This document shows, piece after piece, positions 4,252 to 47,283 of a DNA stretch of 64,000 nt. The notes under the pieces were generated by a model. That model worked only from the letters and a program-made list of their open reading frames with translations, was not told where the DNA came from and did not search any database. A program made the position numbers and the translations under genes. The DNA is taken from the IMG/VR virus record IMGVR_UViG_3300038505_000007, positions 62,001 to 126,000 of that record; one strand, 5' to 3'. The DNA comes from a virus. Numbering within the stretch: position 1 is the first letter of the stretch; each line of letters begins with the position of its first letter.

Positions 4252-4303
4252 CAACGCATAACACAGAAATCTTAAACAAAAATCCGCACAAATAAATGCA
4301 CGG

Positions 4304-4309
4304 TATAAT
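4304..4309 (+). promoter_or_regulatory. GG-TATAAT promoter of thyX
   Basis: ACGGTATAAT ends ten bases before the ATG at 4320 and no ribosome-binding site fits in between, so the mRNA leader must be only a few bases. The GG just before the hexamer recurs at many genes in this window. Confidence 0.6.
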
Positions 4310-4319
4310 TTATTATAGC

Positions 4320-5033
4320 ATGAACAGCAGCAAAAAACAAAATACAGAAGAAAGACTATCAGAGGCCCTACTGTCAAAAAACAAAGTCGAGCTTATATCT
4401 ATAACAGAAAATGCAGAAAAAATAATAACTTACTGCGCAAGAGTCTCTAATCCTAAAAATCAACTTAATTTTCAATCAGCAGAAAAACTGATAAAATACT
4501 TAATAACACACAAGCACTGGTCTCCTTTTGAGATGGCTAGTATGACAGTTCAGATAAAAACATCTAGAGCCATATCGTCGCAAATACTACGACACAGAAG
4601 TTTTACTTTTCAAGAGTTCTCTCAGAGGTACGCGGCTCTCGACGAGAGCGGAGTAGAGATATACACTGCAAGAAGACAAGACGATAAGAATAGACAAAAC
4701 TCCATAGATGACCTACCAGAAGACATTAAGCAAGAGTGGGAAAGGAGACAGCTAGAAAACTGGAAAAAATCTTTTGAGCACTATAAGTGGGCTATAGACA
4801 ACAACATAGCGAAAGAGTGTGCAAGATTTGTGTTACCATTGGGTACATCGACTACGATGTATATGTCCGGCACAATCAGATCATGGATACACTACATAGA
4901 GCTAAGATCAGCAAACGGCACTCAAAAAGAACACATGGATATAGCTCTAAAATGCAAAGATATCTTTAAGAGAGAGCTGCCCTTAATATATCAAGCACTG
5001 TGGGGAAAAGATGAGCAGGAACAAAAAGAGTAA
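4320..5033 (+). CDS. thyX: Flavin-dependent thymidylate synthase ThyX
   Basis: Makes dTMP from dUMP using FAD and methylene-tetrahydrofolate. The signature RHRSFTFQEFSQRY (RHRx7S) sits at about residues 91-104, and the C-terminal part has FVLPLGTSTTMYMSGTIRSW, the expected dUMP/FAD-binding region. 237 aa, normal length. An in-frame ATG lies at 4296 but would contain the -10 box; the ATG at 4320 fits the promoter. The following ClpP gene overlaps by 23 bases, so they form one operon. Differs sharply from the ThyX-like protein at 13377, which lacks these residues. Confidence 0.95.
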   Translation: MNSSKKQNTEERLSEALLSKNKVELISITENAEKIITYCARVSNPKNQLNFQSAEKLIKYLITHKHWSPFEMASMTVQIKTSRAISSQILRHRSFTFQEFSQRYAALDESGVEIYTARRQDDKNRQNSIDDLPEDIKQEWERRQLENWKKSFEHYKWAIDNNIAKECARFVLPLGTSTTMYMSGTIRSWIHYIELRSANGTQKEHMDIALKCKDIFKRELPLIYQALWGKDEQEQKE

Positions 5034-5646
5034 GTTCTTGTTAGAAGAGCAAGACGCGACGCATAACGCAGCTGGCTATACAGAAGTTGTCTCAAATGGT
5101 TTTGAGATAAACGTGTGCGAGTTTGACTCAAACTCTGTTAATGATATTAGGAAGCAAATACTCAGCGCTGCGTCTTCTAACCCAATGAGACCTATTATCT
5201 TAGCCATCGATTCATACGGAGGCTCAGTCTATGGTGCCTTAAAGATAATAGATACTATAAAAGAGATCCCAAACCCTGTCATCACGATGGCTATAGGTAA
5301 AGCCATGAGTGCTGGAGCGCTCCTGTTAACACAAGGCGATATCAGGATCGCGACACCAAACTCAAAAATCATGATACACGAAGTCATAGGTGGCTTCTTT
5401 GGATCAACGTCTGAGATGAACACAAACGCCAGCGAGCTAAACAAGATAAACGACCAAATACTATCAATGATAGCTCACAAGACTTCTTTTAAGACACTAA
5501 AGAAGCTAAAAGACTGGATGAGAAAAAATGGCCCTGGAGACATATTCATCTCTCCTAGAGAGGCCAAAAACTTAGGCATGATAGATGAGATAGGATGGCC
5601 TAAAGTTCAAGAGAAGATCGTCTATAGCATAGCCATTAAAAAATAA
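5011..5646 (+). CDS. clpP: ClpP-family serine peptidase (first copy)
   Basis: ClpP/crotonase-fold peptidase, 211 aa. The nucleophile Ser100 is in GKAMSAGALLL, His123 is in MIHEVIGGFFG, and the likely Asp177 is in GDIFISPREA. The strand IDSYGGSVYGA is the substrate-binding stretch. The start overlaps the thyX 3' end and has GGGGAA upstream. It probably works as an oligomer with an AAA+ unfoldase of the host, or as a stand-alone peptidase; no ATPase partner is in the window. A second, quite different ClpP homologue lies at 7452. Confidence 0.88.
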   Translation: MSRNKKSKFLLEEQDATHNAAGYTEVVSNGFEINVCEFDSNSVNDIRKQILSAASSNPMRPIILAIDSYGGSVYGALKIIDTIKEIPNPVITMAIGKAMSAGALLLTQGDIRIATPNSKIMIHEVIGGFFGSTSEMNTNASELNKINDQILSMIAHKTSFKTLKKLKDWMRKNGPGDIFISPREAKNLGMIDEIGWPKVQEKIVYSIAIKK

Positions 5647-5668
5647 CTTTTTATCCGCTCACTACTGA

Positions 5669-5674
5669 TAAAAT
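5669..5674 (+). promoter_or_regulatory. -10 element TAAAAT, seven bases before a GTG start
   Basis: CTGA-TAAAAT is followed by AATAATT and then GTG at 5682. No ribosome-binding site is possible in this spacing, matching the leaderless pattern seen elsewhere. Confidence 0.4.
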
Positions 5675-5681
5675 AATAATT

Positions 5682-6155
5682 GTGTCTAAGATAAAGAAAA
5701 AGATCAAAGAGTCTTTAGGTTTTAGCGGTCTTAGCAGAGAAGAAGAAGTAATTAGGGCCTACTATGTATTGAATAACAACGAACTAAAACAACAAATATG
5801 TAATCAAATCCAAGGTTTATCGTTCAAAGATATAGATAAAGTCATGGAGGCTATCTTAAACAACTCCTCTATGACAGAGGAAGAGATTAAAGAGCTGTAC
5901 GAGGCATACAAAGAAAAACTTGACTTAGAAATTAGCCAGCCTATAGCTCAACCAGCTCCCAAAAAGAAAGTTAAATATCGCAACCCCACCCAAGAAGAAG
6001 CACAAAGACTGCTTGAGGCGAGCAAAGTACCTAAAGTCGATAAACCTATTAAAAACAATAATAATAAAAATTACATAAATCTATCAATAGAAGAAGCCAG
6101 CGCCTTAGTGAGCGAATATCTTGAATACTTAAAGTCAAAAAAACAAAAAGTATAA
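5682..6155 (+). CDS. Hypothetical charged protein, 157 aa
   Basis: GTG start seven bases after a TAAAAT box, with no Shine-Dalgarno site, so probably translated from a leaderless mRNA. The N-terminal 80 residues are helical and charged. Residues 85-110 are Pro/Lys-rich, followed by an Asn/Lys run (KNNNNKNY) and a short C-terminal helix (SIEEASALVSEYLEYLKSKK). Such a helix-linker-helix layout suggests a binding or adaptor protein, but I do not recognise it. It lies between a ClpP and a subtilase gene. Confidence 0.6.
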   Translation: MSKIKKKIKESLGFSGLSREEEVIRAYYVLNNNELKQQICNQIQGLSFKDIDKVMEAILNNSSMTEEEIKELYEAYKEKLDLEISQPIAQPAPKKKVKYRNPTQEEAQRLLEASKVPKVDKPIKNNNNKNYINLSIEEASALVSEYLEYLKSKKQKV

Positions 6156-6184
6156 GAATACATGTATCGCGTATTGGAGGAAAC

Positions 6185-6961
6185 ATGACACTAAGGCAAG
6201 CTTGTTTGTATTTTTTGTTTTTTGTCGCGTCAGCTGGAACCTTCAACCCAGTCAATACCGCTCTTGCGGCTCCCTTTGTAAGAGTAGCAGTCATCGATAC
6301 TGGTCTACCTATGGTGCCCATTGCCAACGATTATCTATGCCACAGCGGACACAAAGACTTCACGAACACTACCATCGCAGACCTGCAAGGCCACTCAACA
6401 TCTGTGGCTTACTTGATTCACAAGTACTCCGAGCTTAACAAGAGCAAATACTGTCAGGTTCATATAAAGTTCTTTAACAAAGAAGGCGATAACACAGATA
6501 CGCTCAGCTCGTCTGTGCGAGCCATAGAGCACGCTATAGAGTTAAAAGTAGACATAATCAACTACTCAGGTGGAGGAAAAACATTCTCTCAAGAAGAGAA
6601 GATAGCCGTAAAGAAGGCTCTCAATGCTGGGATCATATTTGTCGCCTCGGCTGGAAACGATGGTGTTGATTTAGACCGTTTTAAGTACTACCCTGCCACA
6701 CTAGATGAGCGAGTTATAGTTGTTGGCGCTCACAATAAACAGCATCAAAAATTAAATTCATCTAACTTCTCTGACACGATTGTTGACCTATGGGAGGTAG
6801 GAGTCTTCTACGAAGATTTTGGTACTGGAGAGAAAAAGATGTTCTCTGGCACATCAGCTGCAACCGCAGTGGCTACCGGTAAAATAATTAAAAACTTATT
6901 CAATATAAGGAGCCATTATGAGAGCAACGATAGAGTTCAATTTGCCAGAGGAGAAAGATGA
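6185..6961 (+). CDS. Secreted subtilisin-like serine protease
   Basis: S8-family protease, 258 aa. It starts with a signal peptide (hydrophobic residues about 5-18, Ala-rich cleavage region near 26-29). The catalytic triad is clear: Asp38 in VAVIDTG, His70 in DLQGHSTSVAY and Ser224 in FSGTSAATAVA. The oxyanion Asn158 is in ASAGNDG. There is no propeptide of normal size between signal and catalytic domain. GGAGG precedes the ATG with a normal spacer. Export implies action in the cell envelope or outside. Its 3' end overlaps the next gene by 44 bases. Confidence 0.9.
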   Translation: MTLRQACLYFLFFVASAGTFNPVNTALAAPFVRVAVIDTGLPMVPIANDYLCHSGHKDFTNTTIADLQGHSTSVAYLIHKYSELNKSKYCQVHIKFFNKEGDNTDTLSSSVRAIEHAIELKVDIINYSGGGKTFSQEEKIAVKKALNAGIIFVASAGNDGVDLDRFKYYPATLDERVIVVGAHNKQHQKLNSSNFSDTIVDLWEVGVFYEDFGTGEKKMFSGTSAATAVATGKIIKNLFNIRSHYESNDRVQFARGER

Positions 6962-7163
6962 GTACAAGATGGCAATTTTAGGAGCAAAATTTAAGTCAGC
7001 CTTGGAAGATATAGAGTATGATATTTTTAGACCACCGTTGAAACACGGTTTTGACGACAGAGAGCTGCAAGATCTTTACGAGAAGCACTCCCACGTAAGG
7101 AAGTATCACGAGCTTCTCGCAAAGCGGTTTTATAATATAATCTCTGAGGTAGAGCAACTATGA
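6918..7163 (+). CDS. Hypothetical protein, 81 aa
   Basis: AAGGAG lies six bases before the ATG, inside the 3' end of the subtilase gene. The product is a small charged helical protein with no recognised motif. Its stop overlaps the next start (ATGA), so it is translationally coupled to the gene at 7160. Confidence 0.65.
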   Translation: MRATIEFNLPEEKDEYKMAILGAKFKSALEDIEYDIFRPPLKHGFDDRELQDLYEKHSHVRKYHELLAKRFYNIISEVEQL

Positions 7164-7462
7164 CCACGATGTCTCAAAAGCAAAGACACGAGCTGTCTGC
7201 TTTAAAAAAGCTACTAGAAAACTCCAGCCTACTAGATAAGCTTATTCCATTCTTGATAGAAGAAAAGATTATCACTAAAAAAGACGTACCACTTTTAACG
7301 CAGCAAAACACAGCAAGCAACTTATACGAGCTTCTCAATAAGTCTTTAAAAGAAGAGACTCTACAGATGGTAGAGTACACATGGCAAATACTTCCAGTAG
7401 AGCAATGTAAGATAGTAATAATAGGTAAAAAAGATAAAATTGAGTGCTCTATTAACTTTTAA
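7160..7462 (+). CDS. Hypothetical protein, 100 aa
   Basis: Starts within an ATGA overlap with the gene before it. Mostly helical, with a hydrophobic patch around LLDKLIPFLIEEKIITKKDVPLL but no membrane helix. The last 11 bases overlap the convergent ClpP gene on the other strand, so there is no intergenic terminator. Family not recognised. Confidence 0.65.
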   Translation: MTTMSQKQRHELSALKKLLENSSLLDKLIPFLIEEKIITKKDVPLLTQQNTASNLYELLNKSLKEETLQMVEYTWQILPVEQCKIVIIGKKDKIECSINF

Positions 7463-8249
7463 CTTCTTCGCTGCTAGGTTCTTTGTTTTCTAACTCGGCC
7501 TGTTTTTCAGGCGGCACCTGCTCAAGTGTTTCTAAGTCTTCTTCTGGATAGACCTCAGGTAGGTTAACGCTTATGTTAACTGTGCTCTTCTTGTTGACTC
7601 GCTTGTATATGTTCATGATAAGCTTTTTTAATTGCTTTGATTCTATCTTTGAGTTCAACACAGAAGACCTCACTCTCCTGAACTTACCTCTATTTTTAGG
7701 CTCTATTATCTTATCTGCTAATCCTAAAGTGATAGCTTCTTCTGCTGTTAAGTAGACATCGCGCTGCCCCACGTCTTCCCAAAAAGACTTAGGCAGCCTA
7801 GAGTTCTTTGCATATATGTCGTAGATTAAGTTTCTCACCCTCTTGTCTTCTGTGGCATTTATCTGGCTATCTGTGTGCGAGCCGTCAAAAAAAGTAGAAC
7901 CATCATGTATCATCACTGTTGTGTTCTTGTGTAGATACCTCTCATCGCACCCAGCCATTATACAGCTGGCAGCGCTCATTATGGCTCCTCCGCCATAGAA
8001 CTTAACTTGACAAGGACAAGCTTGAATCTCGTCGTAAAGCCTAAGCATTGAGTAAACATCTCCGCCATACGAGAACATGTGTATCTCTATGGGCTTGGAG
8101 TTTGATTCTGCTACCATAGCGTGTATAGCTCTGATAGCATACTCAACAGTCATTGGGTTAAACTCAGAAGACGTCTCTGAGTCAAAAGAAGAGAGGACCC
8201 CACCAAAGTATATTCTTCTGTTTTTTAGGTCAACTCCATTCTCTATCAT
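7452..8249 (-). CDS. clpP: ClpP-family serine peptidase (second copy, with tail extension)
   Basis: 265 aa. Ser92 lies in GGGAIMSAASC, His115 in VMIHDGSTFF, and Asp164 in QRDVYLTAEEA. The HMFSYGGDVYSML strand matches the ClpP substrate groove. After the core (about residue 190) comes a basic segment and then a 55-residue acidic, Pro-rich tail not found in housekeeping ClpP. It is clearly not a recent duplicate of the copy at 5011: the two share fold motifs but little else. Transcribed divergently from DNA ligase. Confidence 0.88.
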   Translation of the reverse strand: MIENGVDLKNRRIYFGGVLSSFDSETSSEFNPMTVEYAIRAIHAMVAESNSKPIEIHMFSYGGDVYSMLRLYDEIQACPCQVKFYGGGAIMSAASCIMAGCDERYLHKNTTVMIHDGSTFFDGSHTDSQINATEDKRVRNLIYDIYAKNSRLPKSFWEDVGQRDVYLTAEEAITLGLADKIIEPKNRGKFRRVRSSVLNSKIESKQLKKLIMNIYKRVNKKSTVNISVNLPEVYPEEDLETLEQVPPEKQAELENKEPSSEEVKS

Positions 8250-8271
8250 AGAGCACCAAACCTAGTATAGT

Positions 8272-8277
8272 ATTATA
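8272..8277 (-). promoter_or_regulatory. GG-TATAAT promoter for the second ClpP gene
   Basis: The minus strand reads TAGGTATAATACTATAC, ending 22 bases before the ATG at 8249. It lies in the 93-base divergent region shared with the ligase gene. Confidence 0.5.
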
Positions 8278-8342
8278 CCTATAGCCGCTCTTTCTGAAAA
8301 TATACGTATACTACGGATAAAAATAAAATAGGTATAGGTCTT

Positions 8343-9254
8343 ATGATTAAGAAGCCAATGCTAGCATCAGCACTTTCTTTAGAAGATAAAGATGAGGCCT
8401 CATTGCTGAGGTTTCCTATGTTTGCCTCTATAAAGCTAGACGGCATAAGAGCCATAACTAGAGACGGAAAGCTCCTCTCTAGAACATTAAAAGAGATACC
8501 TAACGAGGCTATACAAGATAAGTGCAGTAGTCTACCTAACGGCCTAGATGGAGAGATAATCATAGAGGGAAAAAGCTTTAGTGACATTACCTCTATAGTG
8601 ATGTCAATTAAAGAAAAAGAAATACATGGTTTTAAGTTCTACATATTTGACTATGTAAAAGAATCACCCAATAAGCCGTACTCAGAGAGACTACAAGACT
8701 TACTAGAGCTAAAAAGCAAAGGCCAACTACCAGAAGATATATGTATTATTTTAGATCAGCACGTGATGAGCTCTATAGAGGATATAAGACTCTTTGAAAG
8801 CAAGGCTGCAGATGAAGGCCACGAGGGCATAATGCTAAGAAGAGCAGACTCGCCTTATAAATATGGAAGATCGACTCTAAAAGAGAGCTACTTGTTAAAG
8901 GTAAAAAGATTCGACTACAGCGAAGCAGTCATCCTAGATATAGAGGAGATGATGAACAACTTTAACCCACCAGAGTTAGATCTACTTGGAAACACTAAGA
9001 GGTCTTCTAGTAAATCCGGCCTTGTTCCAGCTAACATCATGGGAGCCCTAGTTGTAAAGGACATCAAGAGCGGGGTTATTTTTAGGATTGGGTCAGGCTT
9101 TGATAAGGAGATGAGAGACAAGATATGGGGCAATAAGCAGACTTATATTGGGAAGACACTGAGATACCACTTCCAGTCCGTGGGGGTAAAGAGCTCACCA
9201 AGAATACCTGTTTTCTCTGGTTTTCGAGACGAGAGGGACATGGGCGACCCCTAG
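8343..9254 (+). CDS. ATP-dependent DNA ligase
   Basis: Seals nicks using ATP. The adenylation motif KLDGIR has the nucleophile Lys31. Motif III-like GLDGEIII, motif IV EGIMLRR and motif V YLLKVKR follow in order, then an OB-fold region up to residue 303. The length fits minimal phage ligases. The upstream region reads TAAAATAGGTATAGGTCTT before the ATG, so one of two weak -10 boxes may drive it, with AGG as the only possible ribosome site. Confidence 0.92.
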   Translation: MIKKPMLASALSLEDKDEASLLRFPMFASIKLDGIRAITRDGKLLSRTLKEIPNEAIQDKCSSLPNGLDGEIIIEGKSFSDITSIVMSIKEKEIHGFKFYIFDYVKESPNKPYSERLQDLLELKSKGQLPEDICIILDQHVMSSIEDIRLFESKAADEGHEGIMLRRADSPYKYGRSTLKESYLLKVKRFDYSEAVILDIEEMMNNFNPPELDLLGNTKRSSSKSGLVPANIMGALVVKDIKSGVIFRIGSGFDKEMRDKIWGNKQTYIGKTLRYHFQSVGVKSSPRIPVFSGFRDERDMGDP

Positions 9255-9294: not shown

Positions 9295-9930
9295 ATGATA
9301 GAAGTTAAAGTATTAGAGATCCCTGAGACACTTGAGAAGAAGTGCCCTAGATGCGGCAAGCCCAGCGCTAATCCTAAAAACCCAAAAGGTCGATGCAAAG
9401 AGTGTCTAGCTGAGCTAAGAAGAGCAAAGAAGACACCTGGACACTACATAAGAGCTCATACTAAAGCAGATGACGCACTTAGAAGACAAGACGGCAAGAA
9501 CGGCACAGCTAGCAAGAAGACCAAAGGCAGAGGCACAAGAAAAGAGATAGTAGACAAGATACAGAGAGAAGAAAAGAAGACCGGCCAACTGTTGAGCCCA
9601 GATAGGATAGATAACTCTAAGGGATATGAGTCATCAAACGTGCGAGCCGTACCAGAAGAGCTCAACAGGGGGCGCCATAAGGTAGACGAAAAGAAACTCA
9701 AAGAGTGGAGAGAGAAGATAAAGAAGTACGACCTCACGCCTGAGCAGATGTACACCATGATGAAGCGTCTCGCAATCGAGGCAAATGATAACGGTGAAAC
9801 CGAGAGACTAGTTAAGAGTGTTGGTTTAGAGTTTTTAAATTTCTTGTTTTCCAGCACAGAGGTTTTAGATAATGAGATCGCTACTGATAGACAGTGGGAT
9901 GAGAATAAGAACAAAAGCGGAGATAGATGA
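9295..9930 (+). CDS. HNH-like nuclease with N-terminal zinc ribbon
   Basis: 211 aa. Residues about 17-38 form a zinc ribbon (CPRCGK ... CKEC). A basic stretch follows, then LSPDRIDNSKGYESSNVRAV, which matches the DRIDxxKGYxxxNVR core of HNH-type phage nucleases. The C-terminal third is helical and of unknown role. It could be a homing endonuclease or a genome-processing nuclease; no intron or intein lies adjacent. The start is fixed by the -10 box six bases upstream. Confidence 0.7.
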   Translation: MIEVKVLEIPETLEKKCPRCGKPSANPKNPKGRCKECLAELRRAKKTPGHYIRAHTKADDALRRQDGKNGTASKKTKGRGTRKEIVDKIQREEKKTGQLLSPDRIDNSKGYESSNVRAVPEELNRGRHKVDEKKLKEWREKIKKYDLTPEQMYTMMKRLAIEANDNGETERLVKSVGLEFLNFLFSSTEVLDNEIATDRQWDENKNKSGDR

Positions 9931-39305: not shown

Positions 39306-41198
39306 CTACTTTTCTTCGTCTAACTTGTTAATAGTATTTGCTACTACTTTTCCATCTATATTGTTAGCCTTTGTAGCCCCAAACTCCTTAGCAGACTCTC
39401 TTAATGACGACTGTTCTGAAGAATCTGGTGCTTGTTGTTCACCTTCACCCTGAGAGGCAGCCATTTGCTGCATCTGCATCATTTGTTCTTGCTGCTCTTG
39501 AAGAGCTTTCTTCTGCTCTTTAGCGTTTTCAATAGCTAATATAGTTTGTTGCCAAGCTAGGAAAGCACTGTCGCCTGGTATGTACGCGAGCTCTTTTCTC
39601 CTAGATGCTCCAACGTCTCCAAAAAATATCTCCCTGATCTCACCTCTTGTGTAGTTCTTCTCTACAAGAGCCCAAAATGCTTGGTTTAGAGGAAGATCCG
39701 CAGCTGGTGTCTTTAATGTAGGCCTTTGAGCGGCTGTAAGGAGGTCGTTCATACTTCTCCATACAGTCATCTCTGCTTGCATCAAAGCAACATTCGTCTG
39801 CGCCGTCTCATCTGTGTAACCTGTAAATACAAACATATATTTTTCAGCAAGCGCTGGGTCAATAGCAGGAATAATATCTGAGTTAACAAGATCTTCAATG
39901 AACATCAGGATAGGATATAAGCCTCTTTCTCTTGAGTAGGCAATCTTGTATTCGTTATTTGCCTGCTGAGAAGGAGATCTTCCTGTACCAGAAGAAAGAT
40001 AATCTAAGCCTAGCTCTACCGGGTCAATCTGAAACATAGAGCAAACAACCCGCATCAAATGGTTGTTAAAATTAATGTACTCCATCTCACGGGCAGACGC
40101 AGACATAGGAACCCACTGCACATCATCCAAGCCCGCAACAATAGGCGTCCTCCATGCATGTTGATGCCCAGATATTGAGTTATAGAACTGCCTTCTAAAA
40201 GCAGCAAGCTGGTCTTGTGTCACTGTTCCTTTTAAGTGCAATATGCCTCTTGCTGCATAACCGTGAGTAAAAAAATTAGCGTTATACGATTCAACATTTA
40301 TATGGTTTGTTATATTTATGATAGCTAACTCAAGCGGGGAATAGCAGTACCCATTTAAATCTACAAAGTTCTGCGGGTTAAATAGCTTAAATATCATGTC
40401 TTCGTCGCCGAAGTACACCATCTCGTTCTTATCGTAAGAGAGCTGGACATATTTATAATAACCAATATCAGCGTCATTTAACGCGTACTCAGCCGACGGA
40501 TCATTAGAGCTCTTAGGTTTAAACAATGCAGTATTATTTTTTAATGACTGCTCTATCTGCTCTCTTGAGATATTTTTGTTCACTAGATAAACAGACTCAG
40601 CAGGAAGAGGCCTAAACCTATGTAAGCCTCCGTTTCGAGTCTTGATCTTTTCTATAGCTACGTGCCCAAAAGTAAGAGCATCTCTCACGATGAGCTTAAG
40701 AAACTCACCAAAAAGCATCCTATCTTCAGCTGGAGTACCCTCTCGTCTGCCGCAATTATAAATAAAATCTTCTAATGCAGCTATCTCTTGCAGCTCTTCT
40801 TGCGTATACTCGCTATTCTTGTCTCTCTTGACTACCCTAAAACCAGTCTCAAATCTCCTATGCTCTGGCCTAGAAAAACGCAACAAAGTGTCTACTCTTG
40901 TTTGAATTATAGTAGACACAAGCCAGTCTCTCATAGAGACATCTTTTAATGTCTTATTGCTTAGACCTGAAAGTTTGTGCTTATATGTACCACTAACACC
41001 AGAATTATCGAAATATGGGTCCTCAATGATCGCCTTCCTACCTACAATCTCTTTGTCATAAGGTCTCTCAGGCTCATCTGGTAAAGAGTCAGCAAGACCA
41101 GAGGAAGGAGATGGAGCAGGATATGAGTTTATCTTTTGCAGAGATTCTTCAGAGATTTGAACCTTATTGCTCTTGAACAAGAAATCAAAAATACCCAT
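39306..41198 (-). CDS. Portal protein
   Basis: 630 aa. Typical portal signs: a wing/stem region with DWLVSTIIQTRVD, the crown side LELAIINITNHINVESYNANFF, and LDYLSSGTGRSPSQQANNEYK, close to the SPSQ motif of large-phage portals. The C-terminal 60 residues are Gln/Met-rich. Located two genes after the terminase, as usual. GAGG precedes the ATG. It forms the dodecameric DNA gate and docks the terminase. Confidence 0.86.
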   Translation of the reverse strand: MGIFDFLFKSNKVQISEESLQKINSYPAPSPSSGLADSLPDEPERPYDKEIVGRKAIIEDPYFDNSGVSGTYKHKLSGLSNKTLKDVSMRDWLVSTIIQTRVDTLLRFSRPEHRRFETGFRVVKRDKNSEYTQEELQEIAALEDFIYNCGRREGTPAEDRMLFGEFLKLIVRDALTFGHVAIEKIKTRNGGLHRFRPLPAESVYLVNKNISREQIEQSLKNNTALFKPKSSNDPSAEYALNDADIGYYKYVQLSYDKNEMVYFGDEDMIFKLFNPQNFVDLNGYCYSPLELAIINITNHINVESYNANFFTHGYAARGILHLKGTVTQDQLAAFRRQFYNSISGHQHAWRTPIVAGLDDVQWVPMSASAREMEYINFNNHLMRVVCSMFQIDPVELGLDYLSSGTGRSPSQQANNEYKIAYSRERGLYPILMFIEDLVNSDIIPAIDPALAEKYMFVFTGYTDETAQTNVALMQAEMTVWRSMNDLLTAAQRPTLKTPAADLPLNQAFWALVEKNYTRGEIREIFFGDVGASRRKELAYIPGDSAFLAWQQTILAIENAKEQKKALQEQQEQMMQMQQMAASQGEGEQQAPDSSEQSSLRESAKEFGATKANNIDGKVVANTINKLDEEK

Positions 41199-41221
41199 AA
41201 AACACCTCTATAGCTCAAAAA

Positions 41222-41227
41222 ATTATA
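41222..41227 (-). promoter_or_regulatory. TATAAT promoter of the portal gene
   Basis: Minus strand TTAGTATAATTTTTTGAGC, 23 bases before the ATG at 41198. Confidence 0.5.
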
Positions 41228-41240
41228 CTAATAAATAAAA

Positions 41241-41615
41241 CTAGTCACCATTAGATTTAGCTATATCCAATACAACTTTTGTAAAGTTCTCGTTAATCTT
41301 GCTAGCTTTTATTAAAAACTCAGTAAAATCAATGTTATTGTTTTTTGTATATACAAAAATCTTATAAACAAGAAAATAGCTTAACTCCTCAAAAGAGGAC
41401 TGATATAGAGCCACAACAAGGTCGACAATAAAATCATAAAAATCTTCTACTTCTTGTTTAGATAGACTTGTTTTGCCTGCATTTTCTAAAAAATCTAAAG
41501 CCACATACATATTTCCTGTTAAATAGGCATACCTTCTCTCATAATCAGAGAAGAATGGCTTCTCAAAATAAGGCGGACCTATCATAGCAAAATCGAGTTT
41601 AGAAAAATTAAACAT
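41241..41615 (-). CDS. Hypothetical protein, 124 aa
   Basis: GGAG six bases before ATG 41615 supports this start; the open frame continues 14 codons upstream but would overlap the terminase end and lacks a site. Helical, aromatic-rich (YFEKPFFSDYERRYAYLTGN). Between terminase and portal genes, so possibly a packaging accessory. Family unknown. Confidence 0.6.
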   Translation of the reverse strand: MFNFSKLDFAMIGPPYFEKPFFSDYERRYAYLTGNMYVALDFLENAGKTSLSKQEVEDFYDFIVDLVVALYQSSFEELSYFLVYKIFVYTKNNNIDFTEFLIKASKINENFTKVVLDIAKSNGD

Positions 41616-41631
41616 ACTGTCTCCGGTTGTC

Positions 41632-43188
41632 TTAAAAAGACCATATAAATCCACCACTGTTGTTAGGATCAGAGCCTGGATCTTCGTCTCTGTCTATATC
41701 AGAGATTTTACCTATTTTTCCTAAATTATTAGGCGTGCCGTCAGCAACTGAAGGCACATCATTATTGTTTATAGGTATACCCATAGCTTCTGCAAACTCT
41801 ACTGGAGTTGGAGCCTTAGTAAAGGCAACCCCAGAAGAGTCTCTAAGACCATAAGTAGAGTCATATGTAAGAGCATCCCCTAAGATAATCGTAGACTTAC
41901 CTAATATCAATGTTATTGCGTAACGGAGAGCATCTATCCAGTGGTCGTGCTCTGTGTCTGGCTCATCTGTAGCAAGCCCAGAAGCATCTAGTTTATAGTG
42001 ATACTGACTCATCTCTGCTATTATATGAGAGCAGGTCTCTTTTGCAAACACAAGCTTAGGTTCAGAAGAGATAGGAGACTTTAGTAGCTTTCTTATTATC
42101 TGGATACCAAACTTAATAGGCTCTTTCTTTGCAGAGTTAGATACAGGAAGACCAGCTTTTTGCATCTCCATTATAGAGCCCTGATCTGCCTGGTCAGGCA
42201 CGTATAACTGTATCCTATATTTGTTATGATACTTTGTTTTTATGTAGTGAATCCAAGTAGGAGCAGAAACATGTGTCATACCGTCAGTCTTAACTACATA
42301 AACATTATCTTTCTTGTCTATAAAGAATATCACTATGGTATTTGGAGAGCTAAATCCCCAGTCAATACCAGCAAATGCCTGAAGACCCATAGAGTGGCAT
42401 TTTGCGACGAAGATGTCATGTGTGCACTCTCCTGGGAACTCCTGACCTGTCAGCATAAGCCACATCTGGTTCCACGTCTTTACATGGAGTCTTTCTTCGA
42501 ACTCTCTAAATATAATCCCCTCAATTGAAGGCTTTAGATTAACAAGCTGAGCTAAAGACCAATCTGGTCCCTCTGCGACAGCTTTTTGAATAACTTCATC
42601 TAGAGTCTTAAGCATGTTAGAAGTAGAGGTTTGCTTTTTAGCATCTGTTAAACAAATGGGAAAAATAGGACAATTAGCACAACCTGAAAAACCTTCTTGA
42701 GCCATATATTCTTTTTGCTTATTTGGATCTTTTTTAAGATACTGCTCTTCTGTAAGTGTCTCCATTCTTTCTTGGTTGTAGTACAGCATTACTTTTTCTG
42801 TGCCAGATCTCTCGTCTGTGCATCTCTCTGTAAACTCAAATACAGTCCATCTCCTAACTGTTCTTCTTTCTTTCTCAGCGTTCTCTATCTGCTTGTTCAT
42901 CAGACCAAATGTAGACTTTCTAGTAGAGATACCAACACGAAGGGCCTTCTTGTCACCCCTAGAGTCGAGCATACCTGATATTTCTTTAAAAGCCTTCTTG
43001 CCTTCTCCGCTAACTGTATCTATCTCGTCTACTACTACTAGAGGAGCATGGGGACCATTACAATTATGGTGAATAGTCCCGTCTTGAGTCTTAAAACTAT
43101 GCTTAAAATCATTATCAGCATTGGAGTCTACTTCCAAAACTGATACAGGTTTTGCTCCTAATAAAGTCTTTAACTTTACTTTAGCCAT
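41632..43188 (-). CDS. terL: Large terminase, C-terminal half, with C-intein at its start
   Basis: 518 aa. Residues 1-42 are a C-terminal split intein: block F-like VSVLEVDSNADNDFKHSF and block G GTIHHN followed by Cys43 as the +1 residue. The mature extein begins CNGPHAPLVVVDEIDTV, the Walker B of the packaging ATPase. The nuclease domain keeps its three Asp: GIDWGFSS, VPDQAD and HDHWIDALRY. A Cys cluster (SGCANCPIFPIC) lies between the domains. It would be joined by protein trans-splicing to the product of the gene at 43946. Weak ribosome site; probably coupled to the protease gene just upstream. Confidence 0.9.
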   Translation of the reverse strand: MAKVKLKTLLGAKPVSVLEVDSNADNDFKHSFKTQDGTIHHNCNGPHAPLVVVDEIDTVSGEGKKAFKEISGMLDSRGDKKALRVGISTRKSTFGLMNKQIENAEKERRTVRRWTVFEFTERCTDERSGTEKVMLYYNQERMETLTEEQYLKKDPNKQKEYMAQEGFSGCANCPIFPICLTDAKKQTSTSNMLKTLDEVIQKAVAEGPDWSLAQLVNLKPSIEGIIFREFEERLHVKTWNQMWLMLTGQEFPGECTHDIFVAKCHSMGLQAFAGIDWGFSSPNTIVIFFIDKKDNVYVVKTDGMTHVSAPTWIHYIKTKYHNKYRIQLYVPDQADQGSIMEMQKAGLPVSNSAKKEPIKFGIQIIRKLLKSPISSEPKLVFAKETCSHIIAEMSQYHYKLDASGLATDEPDTEHDHWIDALRYAITLILGKSTIILGDALTYDSTYGLRDSSGVAFTKAPTPVEFAEAMGIPINNNDVPSVADGTPNNLGKIGKISDIDRDEDPGSDPNNSGGFIWSF

Positions 43189-43194
43189 ATGCCG

Positions 43195-43938
43195 TTATCT
43201 GTTTAATCCTATAACTTGTAGCATAGAAAACACAGGAGCGCCAAAGAAACTAACAGCAGTGGTGCTTATTGATATATTAACTCCAATTACAACATCGTCG
43301 GCGACATTGTTAGTGTCTTTTAAATCATAAGTTGTCATTATAGGCCCCCCGCTCATGCCGCTAAATATGGAAGACCCTTGCATGCTTAGATTGTTCCAAA
43401 CAGGCCCTACGTACATAGCATAAACACATCTAAGAATCCCGCCAAAAGGATAGCCGCATGACCTAATTGGCATTGGTTGCGCAGGAAAGTTTGGCAAATT
43501 ATTTCCATATAAATCTAATCTCAAAGAATCAAAATTGCTAAAATCACCTCTTATAAAAGCTATATCGTTAACGGCGCTAAAAGCAACAACATGCGCTACA
43601 CCTGACTCAGAAAAATCATGAGAAGCAAAATATAAAGTGTTAGGCTCCTTCTTCATAGAAAGAAGATTATGCCTAAAACTTAAGCAATGAGCAGCTGTGA
43701 CTGCCATATTTTTTGAAACAACAAAACCAGAGCAGGTAGTAATAAAACTCTTGTCTGACTGTAACAACCTAATAAATGGATATTTTTTAGTAGGCCGATC
43801 TAATCTCATTAATAATGAATGTGGCTGTAGGTCTTGTCTATCTATGTTTGCCATCTTATACAATGGGTCAGTAAATAATAGTAAATACCCACACCCTACA
43901 ACTAGTACCAATAAAAGCGTTCTTAAAAACAATCCCAT
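43195..43938 (-). CDS. Membrane-anchored trypsin-like (S1) serine protease
   Basis: 247 aa. A hydrophobic N-terminus (LLLVLVVGCGYLLLF) serves as signal anchor. Chymotrypsin-fold triad: His84 in VTAAHC, Asp125 in AVNDIAFIRG and Ser196 in FSGMSGGPI. Two further Cys could form a disulfide. Encoded between the two halves of the split terminase, seven bases after one and six bases before the other, on the same strand and with its own GAGG site. In known fractured genes this position holds a free-standing homing endonuclease; no nuclease motif is present here. Confidence 0.88.
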   Translation of the reverse strand: MGLFLRTLLLVLVVGCGYLLLFTDPLYKMANIDRQDLQPHSLLMRLDRPTKKYPFIRLLQSDKSFITTCSGFVVSKNMAVTAAHCLSFRHNLLSMKKEPNTLYFASHDFSESGVAHVVAFSAVNDIAFIRGDFSNFDSLRLDLYGNNLPNFPAQPMPIRSCGYPFGGILRCVYAMYVGPVWNNLSMQGSSIFSGMSGGPIMTTYDLKDTNNVADDVVIGVNISISTTAVSFFGAPVFSMLQVIGLNR

Positions 43939-43945
43939 AAAAACC

Positions 43946-44734
43946 TCACAAAACTTCGTGTTCTTCAGTTAAGTCTTTTAACTCTACCCATCCTTTATTT
44001 GTGTATACCTTATGATCTAAGGTGCCCTCTATTGTTCTACCGTCATCTAACTCCACTCTAATACACGGTCTATAATCTATGTAATTCGAAACAACCCTAG
44101 CTTCTCCTTGAGCAGACTCAACAATGTCGTCTTTTTTAAGATCGCGCACCTTGACAGATCGCCCGTCTTTCAACTTAACTAAAGAATCCACGGTTAGACA
44201 GGCTTTTAGTGTCATCGGGAGAACCTCAAGGGTTACTTTTTCACCTCCTAGGTTAAACACTGTTTTAGACATGTTTGACTTCTCTAGTATCCTCTTTTCC
44301 TCAGGCACATCCTCTGGAGCAACAATTTCTTGTATGTGTTTCTTAAACAAGAAGTTTTTTTGATAGTTATAGCAACGCTCAGCCTGGCTTAGAATTGCAC
44401 CCACATGAACTACATCTCTTTGGTCATGAAGAAGGACCATAAGCTCCGCCACAGCCATACCTAAGGTCTTTCCGGATCCCCTTCCTGCGACAAACAATAG
44501 CTCTTGAATCTTTTGTGGGTTGTTCTTTAGGACACAGATCGAATAAACCTCCCATATAACATCTAGCGGGTTTGTGTCGCTATATCTAGACACAGTTACA
44601 TCTGGAAGGTCTAGATCAAGAAAATACTTAATCCAAGCTTTTAGCTCTTTCTTAGTCTTACATGGTTTAAGAAAAAGCTCTCTCTTCTCTTCTAAAGTAA
44701 GAGTCTTCTTTTTCTCATTACTCTTTTGAGCCAT
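43946..44734 (-). CDS. terL: Large terminase, N-terminal half, with N-intein at its end
   Basis: 262 aa. The packaging ATPase starts normally and has Walker A AGRGSGKT at 83-90. The extein stops after LPMTLKA at 178. Residues 179-262 are an N-terminal split intein: Cys179 of CLTVDSLVKLKDGRSVKVRD (block A) and block B GTLDHKVYT with the TxxH His. No endonuclease domain. The joined extein would read MTLKA-CNGPHAP, 654 aa in all, a normal terminase. The ATG is seven bases after TATAAA and lacks a ribosome site. Confidence 0.9.
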   Translation of the reverse strand: MAQKSNEKKKTLTLEEKRELFLKPCKTKKELKAWIKYFLDLDLPDVTVSRYSDTNPLDVIWEVYSICVLKNNPQKIQELLFVAGRGSGKTLGMAVAELMVLLHDQRDVVHVGAILSQAERCYNYQKNFLFKKHIQEIVAPEDVPEEKRILEKSNMSKTVFNLGGEKVTLEVLPMTLKACLTVDSLVKLKDGRSVKVRDLKKDDIVESAQGEARVVSNYIDYRPCIRVELDDGRTIEGTLDHKVYTNKGWVELKDLTEEHEVL

Positions 44735-44741
44735 AAGAGTA

Positions 44742-44747
44742 TTTATA
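44742..44747 (-). promoter_or_regulatory. TATAAATA-type promoter, seven bases before ATG
   Basis: Minus strand TTAGTATAAA-TACTCTT-ATG, within the 21-base gap after the small-terminase candidate. T4 late promoters have TATAAATA; the spacing again implies a leaderless mRNA. Confidence 0.6.
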
Positions 44748-44755
44748 CTAAACTA

Positions 44756-45445
44756 TTACTCTTCTACGATATCAATTATAGAGAGCTCTTTGTTTTCTAA
44801 TTGCGAGCTCTTGTTTTCTGAGCTAGACTGTTGGTTGCTGCCTTCTTTAGCTGGAGATATATCTTTTATCTCCTGTTTTTGCTCATAAGAGATGCCCTTT
44901 TTCTGACTCTTATTAGAGAGTTGTTTAGGAGCATCAGGTGTTTTATAGTTGTTTACTACGTTTGAAATGTTGTTAACTGTCCTACTTAGGGTCTCGACTA
45001 CTTCCTTATATTCTTTAATTGACTCTATCCTTAATTTAGGCTTGGGATTGTTTTTAGGATCTAATACGTAATTCTGCATCTCAGTTACGTGCTCAGCTGT
45101 AGCCACAGAGAGTAAGGAAGTCAAGAAGTCGAGCTGATCTACTACAGACTTTACTAGCTTTGCTTTAACTCGCTCTTGTATTGAGCTCTGTATCCTTTCT
45201 CTATCATAGGCCCAGCCTTTTATAGCAGCCGTGAGGGCTATCTGTCCAAAAGAGTATTGCGGGAACTGAATAGAGAGTCTATAAAGAGACTCTCCTAATA
45301 AATACATCTCATAAAGCTTAGACGCCTCATGGTCTGGGATAATAGACTTAGTCTTATATTTTCTTAAGAAACGCTGAGCGTGAATTATCTCGTCTTCCGA
45401 GAGTCCATATCGCTGCTTATCTGTTAACTTTCTTTTGTCTCCCAT
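44756..45445 (-). CDS. Probable small terminase subunit, 229 aa
   Basis: Lies directly upstream of the large terminase. The N-terminal 85 residues are helical with a possible HTH (LGESLYRLSIQFPQYSFGQI), the middle forms a coiled coil, and the last 70 are Ser/Gln/Glu-rich and disordered. This is the usual small-terminase layout. No sequence signature is decisive. GGAGGG precedes the ATG, which lies within the upstream gene. Confidence 0.6.
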   Translation of the reverse strand: MGDKRKLTDKQRYGLSEDEIIHAQRFLRKYKTKSIIPDHEASKLYEMYLLGESLYRLSIQFPQYSFGQIALTAAIKGWAYDRERIQSSIQERVKAKLVKSVVDQLDFLTSLLSVATAEHVTEMQNYVLDPKNNPKPKLRIESIKEYKEVVETLSRTVNNISNVVNNYKTPDAPKQLSNKSQKKGISYEQKQEIKDISPAKEGSNQQSSSENKSSQLENKELSIIDIVEE

Positions 45446-45812
45446 GGAGATCCCTCCAAAAGGACTTATTCTTTACAGCCATCATTGCTGCCCTTAACTT
45501 TGCATCATCTATATTATACTTAGAACTTATATCTTGTATAGATAAGCCCAAATATATTAAAGAGACTAGCCACCTCCCCACTGGGGATAAGTTCTTCTCT
45601 ATAGTCTCCTTTATAGAGAGAGCATCCATATTAGATAAAACAGTATTTATTTTTAAAATAAATGTCTTTTCTTGTTCTATCCTGCTTTTTATGATATTTA
45701 ATATATAACAAGCAGCATAACTTGGATCGTTTTGCAGTAAGAAAGCATGGGCCTCGTCTTCTAAGACGTCAAAATCACTACTAGACAAAACTAATCTTTT
45801 CTGGCCCTTCAT
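45417..45812 (-). CDS. Hypothetical protein, 131 aa
   Basis: Helical. Residues 85-110 (LIYLGLSIQDISSKYNIDDA) look like a helix-turn-helix and resemble the HTH of the following small-terminase candidate, so the two could be related or partners. The start is eight bases after a GG-TAGAAT box. Overlaps its neighbours at both ends. Confidence 0.58.
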   Translation of the reverse strand: MKGQKRLVLSSSDFDVLEDEAHAFLLQNDPSYAACYILNIIKSRIEQEKTFILKINTVLSNMDALSIKETIEKNLSPVGRWLVSLIYLGLSIQDISSKYNIDDAKLRAAMMAVKNKSFWRDLHGRQKKVNR

Positions 45813-46239
45813 TATTTTCTATTCTACCATAGCTGCTAATATGCATGAACCTCAAAGATGCCTTCCATGAAGGACCAAGAGTAAGGGCAAGATTATTATT
45901 TAGCATATCCTCGTGGCCATCTATGTCTTCAAACACTCTCAAGCGCTTACATAGAAGATAATACAACACCTTGTTAGATCTTAACTTTTTAGCAACACGA
46001 TACCTAAACATAGTGATAGAGTCAGTATAGATCACGTAATCTATCATCTTAGACTTGAAGTTTATGTCAAGAGATATAGCCAATATCTTGGTATCAATAA
46101 CAGTGGCTAGCACAAAAAGATCATTCTTTATGCTATCTGTTATTAAGTTATTGTTAATAAGCCACCTTCTGCTGTCTACATATTGATCTGGAGACACTGT
46201 CTTTCCATTACTAAGGACTATCTTAAAATCTTTGCTCAT
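45781..46239 (-). CDS. Hypothetical protein, 152 aa
   Basis: AGGAG precedes the ATG. Mixed alpha/beta, with FKIVLSNGKTVSPDQYVDSR at the start and a helical middle with basic residues (FRYRVAKKLRSNKVLYYLL). No motif recognised. Between gp47 and terminase genes. Confidence 0.6.
   Translation of the reverse strand: MSKDFKIVLSNGKTVSPDQYVDSRRWLINNNLITDSIKNDLFVLATVIDTKILAISLDINFKSKMIDYVIYTDSITMFRYRVAKKLRSNKVLYYLLCKRLRVFEDIDGHEDMLNNNLALTLGPSWKASLRFMHISSYGRIENNEGPEKISFV
45821..45826 (-). promoter_or_regulatory. GG-TAGAAT promoter, eight bases before ATG
   Basis: Minus strand TATGGTAGAAT-AGAAAATA-ATG at 45812, inside the end of the gene at 45781. Confidence 0.5.
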
Positions 46240-46260
46240 AAAGATCTCCTAGCAATATTT

Positions 46261-47283
46261 TTATACATCGAGCTTAAAATCTATAGCGCTAAGAGCTAAT
46301 CGTTTTAACACATCCTTGTCTAGGGAGCCAGAGTAGACCTTTTCTATATACTCTTCTATAATAGACCCTATACTAACAGCGCTGATCTGTGTGTTCTTCT
46401 TCTCTTTATCTAAGAACGTTGTCTTAACAGATATCCTCTTTTGTGAGGCAGCGTCCTTATACTGTTTTGAAGAAAGATACGACAATATCTCTGCTTTTGG
46501 CCCAGAAATATATAAAACCCAACTATTAAAAGTATCCACACTCTTAGATAAGACATCAGTTATGTGGTCAAAATCTTGAGTAGATGATACAGTGAACCTC
46601 AAAGAACGCCACATAGGAAGCGGCGACTCAATAAAGCTAAACTTTCTAGTAATTGTGTCATAAATATGGATGCCCTTGATCTGGTCTATATCAGAAGCAT
46701 CTTGAGCATAAGGTGTTCCAACATAAAAAACTTTAGAATTACTCTTCTCAGAGAAGAGCTCATGTTTCTTATGTATATGCCCTGAAATTATTAACTTATT
46801 CTCACCCACAGTATCTAAATCTACTCCCGTAGACGCAACAGCATGCCCATAGTCTGCTCCTATAAACCCCTGATGGGCAACACACACATCTGTGGTTATT
46901 TTTGGAAACTCTAAATCGTTGTGTATATACGGGACATAAGTGATTCCATCTATCACTCTTGGTGAGTCTACTACTATGAAATGTTTTCTAGTATCCTTTA
47001 TGTGCTTAAGAGCATGATATGTATCATCGTTAGGCTTATACATGTCATGGTTGCCTAGCACGTACACGTACTGTGCCTTACATAAGATCCTATCAACGCT
47101 ATCAAAAAATTCAGTAAGTATCTCTGACCTCAACACAGCGTGAGTATCAAAAGTGTCGCCTAGATTAACAACTAAATCAGGCTTATACTGGTCTACTACA
47201 GACTCTATCCAGTTGTTGAAATCTTTAACAAGAGAGAGTCTGCTAATTTTTAGATGAGGATCTCCTATAAAAAGAATCTTCAT
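46261..47283 (-). CDS. Mre11/SbcD-type nuclease subunit (T4 gp47-like)
   Basis: 340 aa. Metallophosphoesterase motifs in order: FIGDPHLK, NLGDTFDTH, VLGNHDMY and SGHIHKKH. The C-terminal 120 residues would contact the ATPase partner. With the gp46-like ATPase at 57935 it forms the end-resecting nuclease for recombination-dependent replication. The two subunits are 11 kb apart rather than adjacent. Weak ribosome site, probably coupled to the aldolase gene upstream. Confidence 0.88.
   Translation of the reverse strand: MKILFIGDPHLKISRLSLVKDFNNWIESVVDQYKPDLVVNLGDTFDTHAVLRSEILTEFFDSVDRILCKAQYVYVLGNHDMYKPNDDTYHALKHIKDTRKHFIVVDSPRVIDGITYVPYIHNDLEFPKITTDVCVAHQGFIGADYGHAVASTGVDLDTVGENKLIISGHIHKKHELFSEKSNSKVFYVGTPYAQDASDIDQIKGIHIYDTITRKFSFIESPLPMWRSLRFTVSSTQDFDHITDVLSKSVDTFNSWVLYISGPKAEILSYLSSKQYKDAASQKRISVKTTFLDKEKKNTQISAVSIGSIIEEYIEKVYSGSLDKDVLKRLALSAIDFKLDV

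What the first reader, a model, noticed from the sequence alone, without database searches (positions are those of the whole stretch)
41632..44734. Terminase split by a trans-splicing intein, with a trypsin-like protease gene between the halves
Seen: TerL N-half ends in an 84-aa N-intein (Cys179, TxxH block), TerL C-half begins with a 42-aa C-intein (HHN then Cys), and both exteins are complete with Walker A on one and Walker B plus nuclease on the other. Known: fractured split-intein genes in phage metagenomes can have a free-standing homing endonuclease between halves. Here the intervening gene is a signal-anchored S1 protease with a full His-Asp-Ser triad. A protease in this slot is, as far as I know, not a described arrangement. 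It could be a chance passenger, replace the endonuclease as cargo, or act on the unspliced precursors.
Basis: partly seen in the sequence, partly recalled or inferred. Interest (0 to 1): 0.9.

Follow-up and report, generated by a model that had tools for sequence, protein, structure and literature searches.

The report
Split phage terminase carrying protease cargo
A bacterial virus makes its DNA-packaging motor from two separate genes that should be stitched together by a self-splicing protein element, and the gap between them, which in related viruses usually holds a selfish DNA-cutting gene, here holds an unrelated exported-protease gene; relatives show that this gap is a place where genes are swapped in and out.

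Summary
TerL is encoded in two ORFs ending and beginning in complementary intein halves (84 + 42 aa). The 654-aa splice product aligns without a gap at the junction (LKA|CNGPH) to contiguous TerL from dozens of relatives, 58-71% identical. A trypsin-like (S1), signal-anchored protease lies between the halves, 7 and 6 bp away.

Relatives explain it. The same split intein at the same TerL site occurs in about 12 other lineages. In ten the slot holds homing or HNH endonucleases. In two it holds a PolX-like nucleotidyltransferase plus an unknown phage protein. Two phages 87.6% identical in flanking DNA differ only in the slot (HNH versus PolX pair), with breakpoints at the end of the N-intein and the start of the C-intein. 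The slot is therefore an exchangeable cassette, and the protease is non-nuclease cargo. Exported S1 proteases of the same family sit at a clpP-subtilisin-S1-ligase locus in intact-terL relatives; the window keeps that locus but lacks the S1 gene there. Relocation is likely but not proven.

Split TerL inteins were known; non-nuclease cargo in the slot appears new. A protease acting on precursors is unlikely. The protease arrangement was seen in one record, and splicing is untested.

The parts
44201..44734 (-). TerL N-extein (178 aa; Walker A GRGSGKT)
   Evidence: collinear with residues 1-178 of contiguous TerL in relatives
43946..44200 (-). N-intein half, 84 aa (Cys1, TLDH block B), plus TGA stop
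   Evidence: profile hits gp41-1 intein, 1.5e-4; Foldseek hits gp41-1 and DnaB inteins
43195..43938 (-). Signal-anchored S1 (trypsin/HtrA-like) serine protease, 247 aa, triad H84/D125/S196, in the slot between the intein halves
43063..43188 (-). C-intein half, 42 aa, ends HHN
41632..43062 (-). TerL C-extein (476 aa, Cys+1, Walker B LVVVDE, RNase H-like nuclease) plus stop
44756..45445 (-). Upstream neighbour, probable small terminase subunit (weak)
   Evidence: Terminase_2 E 0.023, below cut-off
39306..41198 (-). Portal protein downstream
6185..6961 (+). Subtilisin-like S8 protease; in relatives its neighbour is the S1 protease that here sits in the terL slot
8343..9254 (+). DNA ligase that ends the clpP-S8-S1-ligase locus; no S1 gene between S8 and ligase in the window

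Best explanation
This is a fractured terL gene. A naturally split intein, inserted between Ala178 and Cys179 just before Walker B, joins two separately translated TerL halves into one 654-aa packaging motor by protein trans-splicing. The DNA between the halves lies outside both coding halves and is an exchangeable cassette. In related phages it carries homing or HNH endonucleases that presumably spread the element; in some lineages the nuclease has been swapped for ordinary phage genes. In this phage the cassette is an exported, membrane-anchored S1 protease of a phage family that normally sits beside a subtilisin-like protease elsewhere in the genome. The protease is a passenger that does its own job, probably in the host envelope late in infection, and has no role in splicing. 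Shown: two ORFs with complementary intein halves, exact match to intact orthologues, the same split intein with nucleases or other cargo in the slot of relatives, a clean cassette swap between two relatives, and absence of the S1 gene from its usual locus in the window. Inferred: that splicing occurs, that a nuclease once occupied this window's slot, that the protease moved from the clpP-ligase locus of this lineage, and its envelope role.
For: Spliced TerL aligns gaplessly with contiguous relatives. The junction residue is Cys in 48 of 65 readable intact TerLs. Same-site split inteins with endonucleases in the slot: L085 HNH, L087/L116/L121 phrog_3339 homing endonuclease at 1e-35 to 1e-48, and L131-L135, L143-L148. 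Slot with a PolX-like gene plus a 292/299-aa gene in L118 and L137. L132 and L137 are 87.6% identical in DNA up to L132:1585 and again from L132:2443, exactly the slot edges, HNH versus PolX pair; the TerL tree puts PolX cargo next to nuclease cargo twice. S1 family at clpP-S8-S1-ligase in relatives. The window has that locus without S1, and the slot protease is the only S1 hit in the record. A full scan for the intein junction found 31 contigs; none of the slots readable there holds a protease.
Against: The protease-in-slot arrangement is known from one metagenomic record, and an assembly error was not excluded by reads. The window's protease is only 24-31% identical to its phage relatives and its place among them is unresolved, so relocation within this lineage cannot be told from capture from another phage. 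Its nearest sampled TerL relatives are uninvaded, so the nuclease-first order is inferred from other lineages. No splicing data.
Confidence: 0.78

Rival explanations
1. The protease acts on the unspliced TerL or intein precursors (processing, quality control or regulation), so its place in the slot is functional.
For: Its position between the halves and tight gene spacing (7 and 6 bp) guarantee co-expression.
Against: N-terminal anchor helix predicts export; family members sit by clpP, subtilisin, ligase or an endolysin, not by terL, in phages with intact terL; no other fractured terL read here has a protease; inteins need no protease.
Confidence: 0.04
2. The protease replaced no nuclease: it was captured directly with, or into, an already nuclease-free split intein from another phage by ordinary illegitimate recombination.
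For: The window's closest TerL relatives lack the intein; the protease's best match is in an unrelated phage, L109; no nuclease remnant exists in the slot.
Against: Same-site split inteins in other lineages mostly have nucleases, and swaps at the slot edges are seen directly.
Confidence: 0.25
3. The two TerL halves work as separate subunits and the intein halves are dead remnants (genes in pieces, as in Aeromonas phage Aeh1 nrdA).
For: Such cases exist (PMC3653736); the window TerL branch is long (0.45).
Against: Cys1, TxxH, terminal HN and Cys+1 are all kept; the split lies just before Walker B inside the ATPase core; intein halves are 43-52% identical among lineages with conserved motifs.
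Confidence: 0.05
4. Assembly chimera: the protease gene was joined into terL by mis-assembly.
For: Single record; slightly lower G+C (0.37 against 0.40).
Against: All three ORFs intact, co-oriented and tightly packed; both junctions fall where relatives' cassettes begin and end; the rest of the locus is syntenic.
Confidence: 0.04

Closest known systems
Fractured genes with split inteins and a free-standing homing endonuclease (Dassa et al. 2009, NAR; cited in PMC11766414 and PMC10448857; paper itself not held)
   Same: Gene cut in two, an intein half on each part, an unrelated ORF between the halves; the N-intein profile is closest to gp41-1, a split intein identified from metagenomic data
   Different: The intervening ORF is an exported serine protease, not an endonuclease
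AceL-TerL, GOS-TerL and Cat-TerL split inteins (PMC11766414)
   Same: Naturally split inteins in phage terminase large subunits
   Different: Those are atypically split (N-half 25-37 aa, C-half 104-115 aa); this one is canonically split (84 + 42 aa)
Split PolB intein with an HNH gene between halves in Pseudomonas phage MIJ3 (PMC6892783)
   Same: Three-gene order half / cargo / half
   Different: Different host gene; the cargo is a nuclease
HEG-islands (PMC10448857)
   Same: Phage genes as cargo of homing loci; nuclease content at a fixed site is unstable
   Different: HEG-islands are core genes bracketed by nucleases; here accessory genes sit inside the split intein in place of the nuclease
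Phage S1 proteases (phrog_9683)
   Same: Anchor helix, TAAHC, GMSGGP motifs
   Different: Relatives sit between a subtilisin gene and DNA ligase, or near an endolysin, not inside terL

Membership tests
Fractured gene with a naturally split intein | Two ORFs, each an extein part plus an intein half with splice motifs (Cys1, TxxH, HN, Cys+1) | tested here: met
Fractured gene with a naturally split intein | Exteins add up to one collinear host protein present uninterrupted in relatives | tested here: met
Fractured gene with a naturally split intein | Free-standing homing endonuclease between the halves | tested here: not met
   The slot holds an S1 protease; met in ten related lineages
Fractured gene with a naturally split intein | Protein trans-splicing activity | not testable with these tools
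   Needs co-expression or proteomics
Atypical split TerL inteins (AceL, GOS, Cat) | Very short N-intein (25-37 aa) with a C-intein of about 104-115 aa | tested here: not met
   84 + 42 aa against the table in PMC11766414
Atypical split TerL inteins (AceL, GOS, Cat) | Same insertion point in TerL | not tested
   Extein junctions of those inteins were not available here
Peptidase family S1 (trypsin/HtrA-like) | His-Asp-Ser triad and chymotrypsin fold | tested here: met
Peptidase family S1 (trypsin/HtrA-like) | Proteolytic activity | not testable with these tools
   No assay
HEG-island | Core genes flanked on both sides by homing endonucleases | tested here: not met
   Neighbouring genes 39306-47283 show no endonuclease match by Pfam or PHROGs other than the SbcD-like phosphoesterase

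The most novel reading that the evidence does not exclude
The gap of a split-intein gene is a general cargo port of phage genomes. Because whatever lies between the halves is outside both coding halves, homologous recombination in the conserved intein halves can exchange the nuclease for any useful gene and put it under late terminase expression. Phages have domesticated a selfish element's slot to relocate accessory genes (protease, PolX pair).
Probability: 0.4. Interest if true: 0.78.

Novelty: new variant of a known kind. Interest (0 to 1): 0.62.

Why it matters
Fractured genes have been described as a homing nuclease sitting between two split-intein halves. This locus and its relatives show that the nuclease can be lost and replaced by working phage genes while the split intein stays, because the packaging motor then depends on it. 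That gives a concrete route by which a selfish element turns into a recombination port, and a testable case of cargo exchange with breakpoints at the intein halves. It also adds a family of canonically split TerL inteins, a possible source of new tools for protein ligation.

Tried and rejected
Protease relatives by single-sequence scan of viral contigs and by tblastn in phage records: none; profile-based search and relatives' genomes worked. A Bacteroidota sample of 198 genomes gave no hit to the protease, but the search had no positive control, so it says little about host origin. The PF13365 search missed the window's own protease, so its negatives were not used. The S1 tree (8 rows) and the intein tree (6 rows) are unresolved, so no claim of orthology or of intein descent rests on them. 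Promoter and terminator scans did not differ from shuffles. Dassa et al. 2009 could not be read, so statements on it rest on citing papers and memory. Considered and rejected: a PDZ-bearing HtrA (the C-terminus is too short) and a prohead maturation protease (wrong fold class, anchor helix; from general knowledge).

Full report
Observation. On the minus strand the window holds three tightly packed ORFs: TerL-N (44734..43946, 262 aa), a protease (43938..43195, 247 aa) and TerL-C (43188..41632, 518 aa), separated by 7 and 6 bp. TerL-N ends in an 84-aa N-intein starting at Cys179; TerL-C starts with a 42-aa C-intein ending HHN, followed by Cys. Joining the exteins gives 654 aa that align without any gap at the junction with uninterrupted TerL of relatives, 58-71% identical over about 644 aa, and with Myxococcus phage Mx1 (29%). 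Pfam and PHROGs recognise the TerL nuclease half (Terminase_6C 6.5e-8; phrog_5653 1.8e-24) and, below cut-off, Hint/intein models on the N-half. A profile of six related N-inteins finds the gp41-1 intein first among solved structures (1.5e-4); the AlphaFold model of TerL-N (pLDDT 68) finds gp41-1 and DnaB inteins first (Foldseek E 2e-3, probability 1.0). Only one terL is found in the 126-kb record.

Protease. It has an N-terminal hydrophobic helix (residues 2-23) and the triad H84, D125, S196, conserved in seven other phage proteins. The model (mean pLDDT 72) has the chymotrypsin fold, and the family profile is closest to HtrA/DegP-type proteases. It matches phrog_9683 'protease' weakly (2.3e-5); the relatives match the same family better.

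Relatives at the same site. Among 91 loci first fetched, most had contiguous TerL, but L085 and L087 had the same split intein at the same residue. Further scans with the intein alignments and a scan for the coding sequence of NCNGPH(V/A)P (31 contigs) gave about twelve other lineages. Slot contents: homing endonucleases of phrog_3339 (L087 on the opposite strand, L116, L121, L133/L135), HNH genes (L085, L132), both together (L131, L134, L143-L148), a more broken HNH arrangement (L169/L175), and in two lineages (L118/L119 and L137-L142) no nuclease but a DNA-polymerase-X-like nucleotidyltransferase (PF14791 3.3e-12) plus a 292/299-aa protein of unknown function. In the intact-terL phage G001 homologues of that pair lie next to each other near a helicase gene, about 20 kb from terL. 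No readable slot other than the window's holds a protease. Records very near the window's own may be hidden by the tool.

Cassette exchange. L132 (HNH) and L137 (PolX pair) are 87.6% identical in DNA on both sides of the slot; homology stops at L132:1585, the end of the N-intein core, and resumes at L132:2443, the start of the C-half. The TerL tree pairs L137 with L132 (97% identical exteins, support 100) and L118 with L145 (91%, support 98), so PolX and nuclease cargo alternate at least twice in one clade. Over the 74-TerL tree the split state needs at least four changes, and the window stands apart from all other split TerLs. The target residue Cys179 is native in 48 of 65 readable intact TerLs.

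Source of the protease. In relatives with intact terL, exported S1 proteases of this family stand in a conserved locus thyX-clpP-S8 subtilisin-S1-DNA ligase (G004, G005, L110; G001 has it without an S8 gene seen; G002 has a different S1 there). The window has the same locus at about 4296-9254 with S8 (6185-6961) and ligase (8343-9254) but no S1 and no remnant. Profile and reciprocal searches find only the slot protease in the record. The simplest account is relocation of a resident gene, but the window protein is diverged (24-31%) and its branch is unresolved, so capture from another phage remains open. In one unrelated phage (L109) the S1 gene is near an endolysin, which fits, without proving, an envelope or lysis role.

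Mechanism. Both halves are translated; the intein halves associate and splice, giving whole TerL (inferred from motif and extein conservation). Since the cassette is outside both coding halves, its content can change freely. The conserved intein halves on either side offer homology for recombination, and the nuclease, when present, drives homing (inference; for the instability of HEG loci and their cargo see PMC10448857). In the window the cassette encodes a protease that should be expressed with the packaging genes and act outside the cytoplasm. A role in splicing is unlikely.

Known and new. Split TerL inteins (AceL, GOS, Cat; PMC11766414), fractured genes with nuclease cargo (PMC6892783) and unstable HEG content (PMC10448857) are known. 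I found no report of a non-nuclease gene between split-intein halves in the papers searched, but the founding paper could not be read. The finding is a new variant of a known kind, with a more general point (exchangeable cargo slot) supported by relatives.

Noticed in passing
L169:6136-9571 (minus) and L175: TerL locus in which the N-half ORF runs into an HNH gene, the main N-intein block is a separate 140-aa ORF, and the C-half follows: possibly an intein in three pieces; seen in two contigs.
   Followed up: partly
L085:183-2195, L091:6471-9674, L134, L135, L145: A second, contiguous intein of about 415-425 aa sits inside Walker A (GRGSGK|T) of TerL in several relatives (LAGLIDADG domain by Pfam in L085).
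   Followed up: partly
L145:8798-11476: TerL-C ORF of 892 aa carries a further in-frame insertion of about 1.1 kb near TerL residue 450, probably a third intein.
   Followed up: no
L129:1541-4396: Three tandem paralogues of the 292-aa unknown protein next to a PolX-like gene in an intact-terL phage; the same pair is slot cargo in L118 and L137.
   Followed up: partly
window 5011-5646 and 7452-8249: Two ClpP-like genes on opposite strands in the locus that also holds a subtilisin-like protease.
   Followed up: no
window 9295-9930: 211-aa ORF that looks like an HNH-type endonuclease, directly after DNA ligase (by eye only).
   Followed up: no
L089 (LNEN01000305.1): A 146,658-bp phage contig is binned in a Cytophagales MAG and has the same length as an IMG/VR contig (L026); likely the same sequence and a binning or host-link issue.
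   Followed up: no
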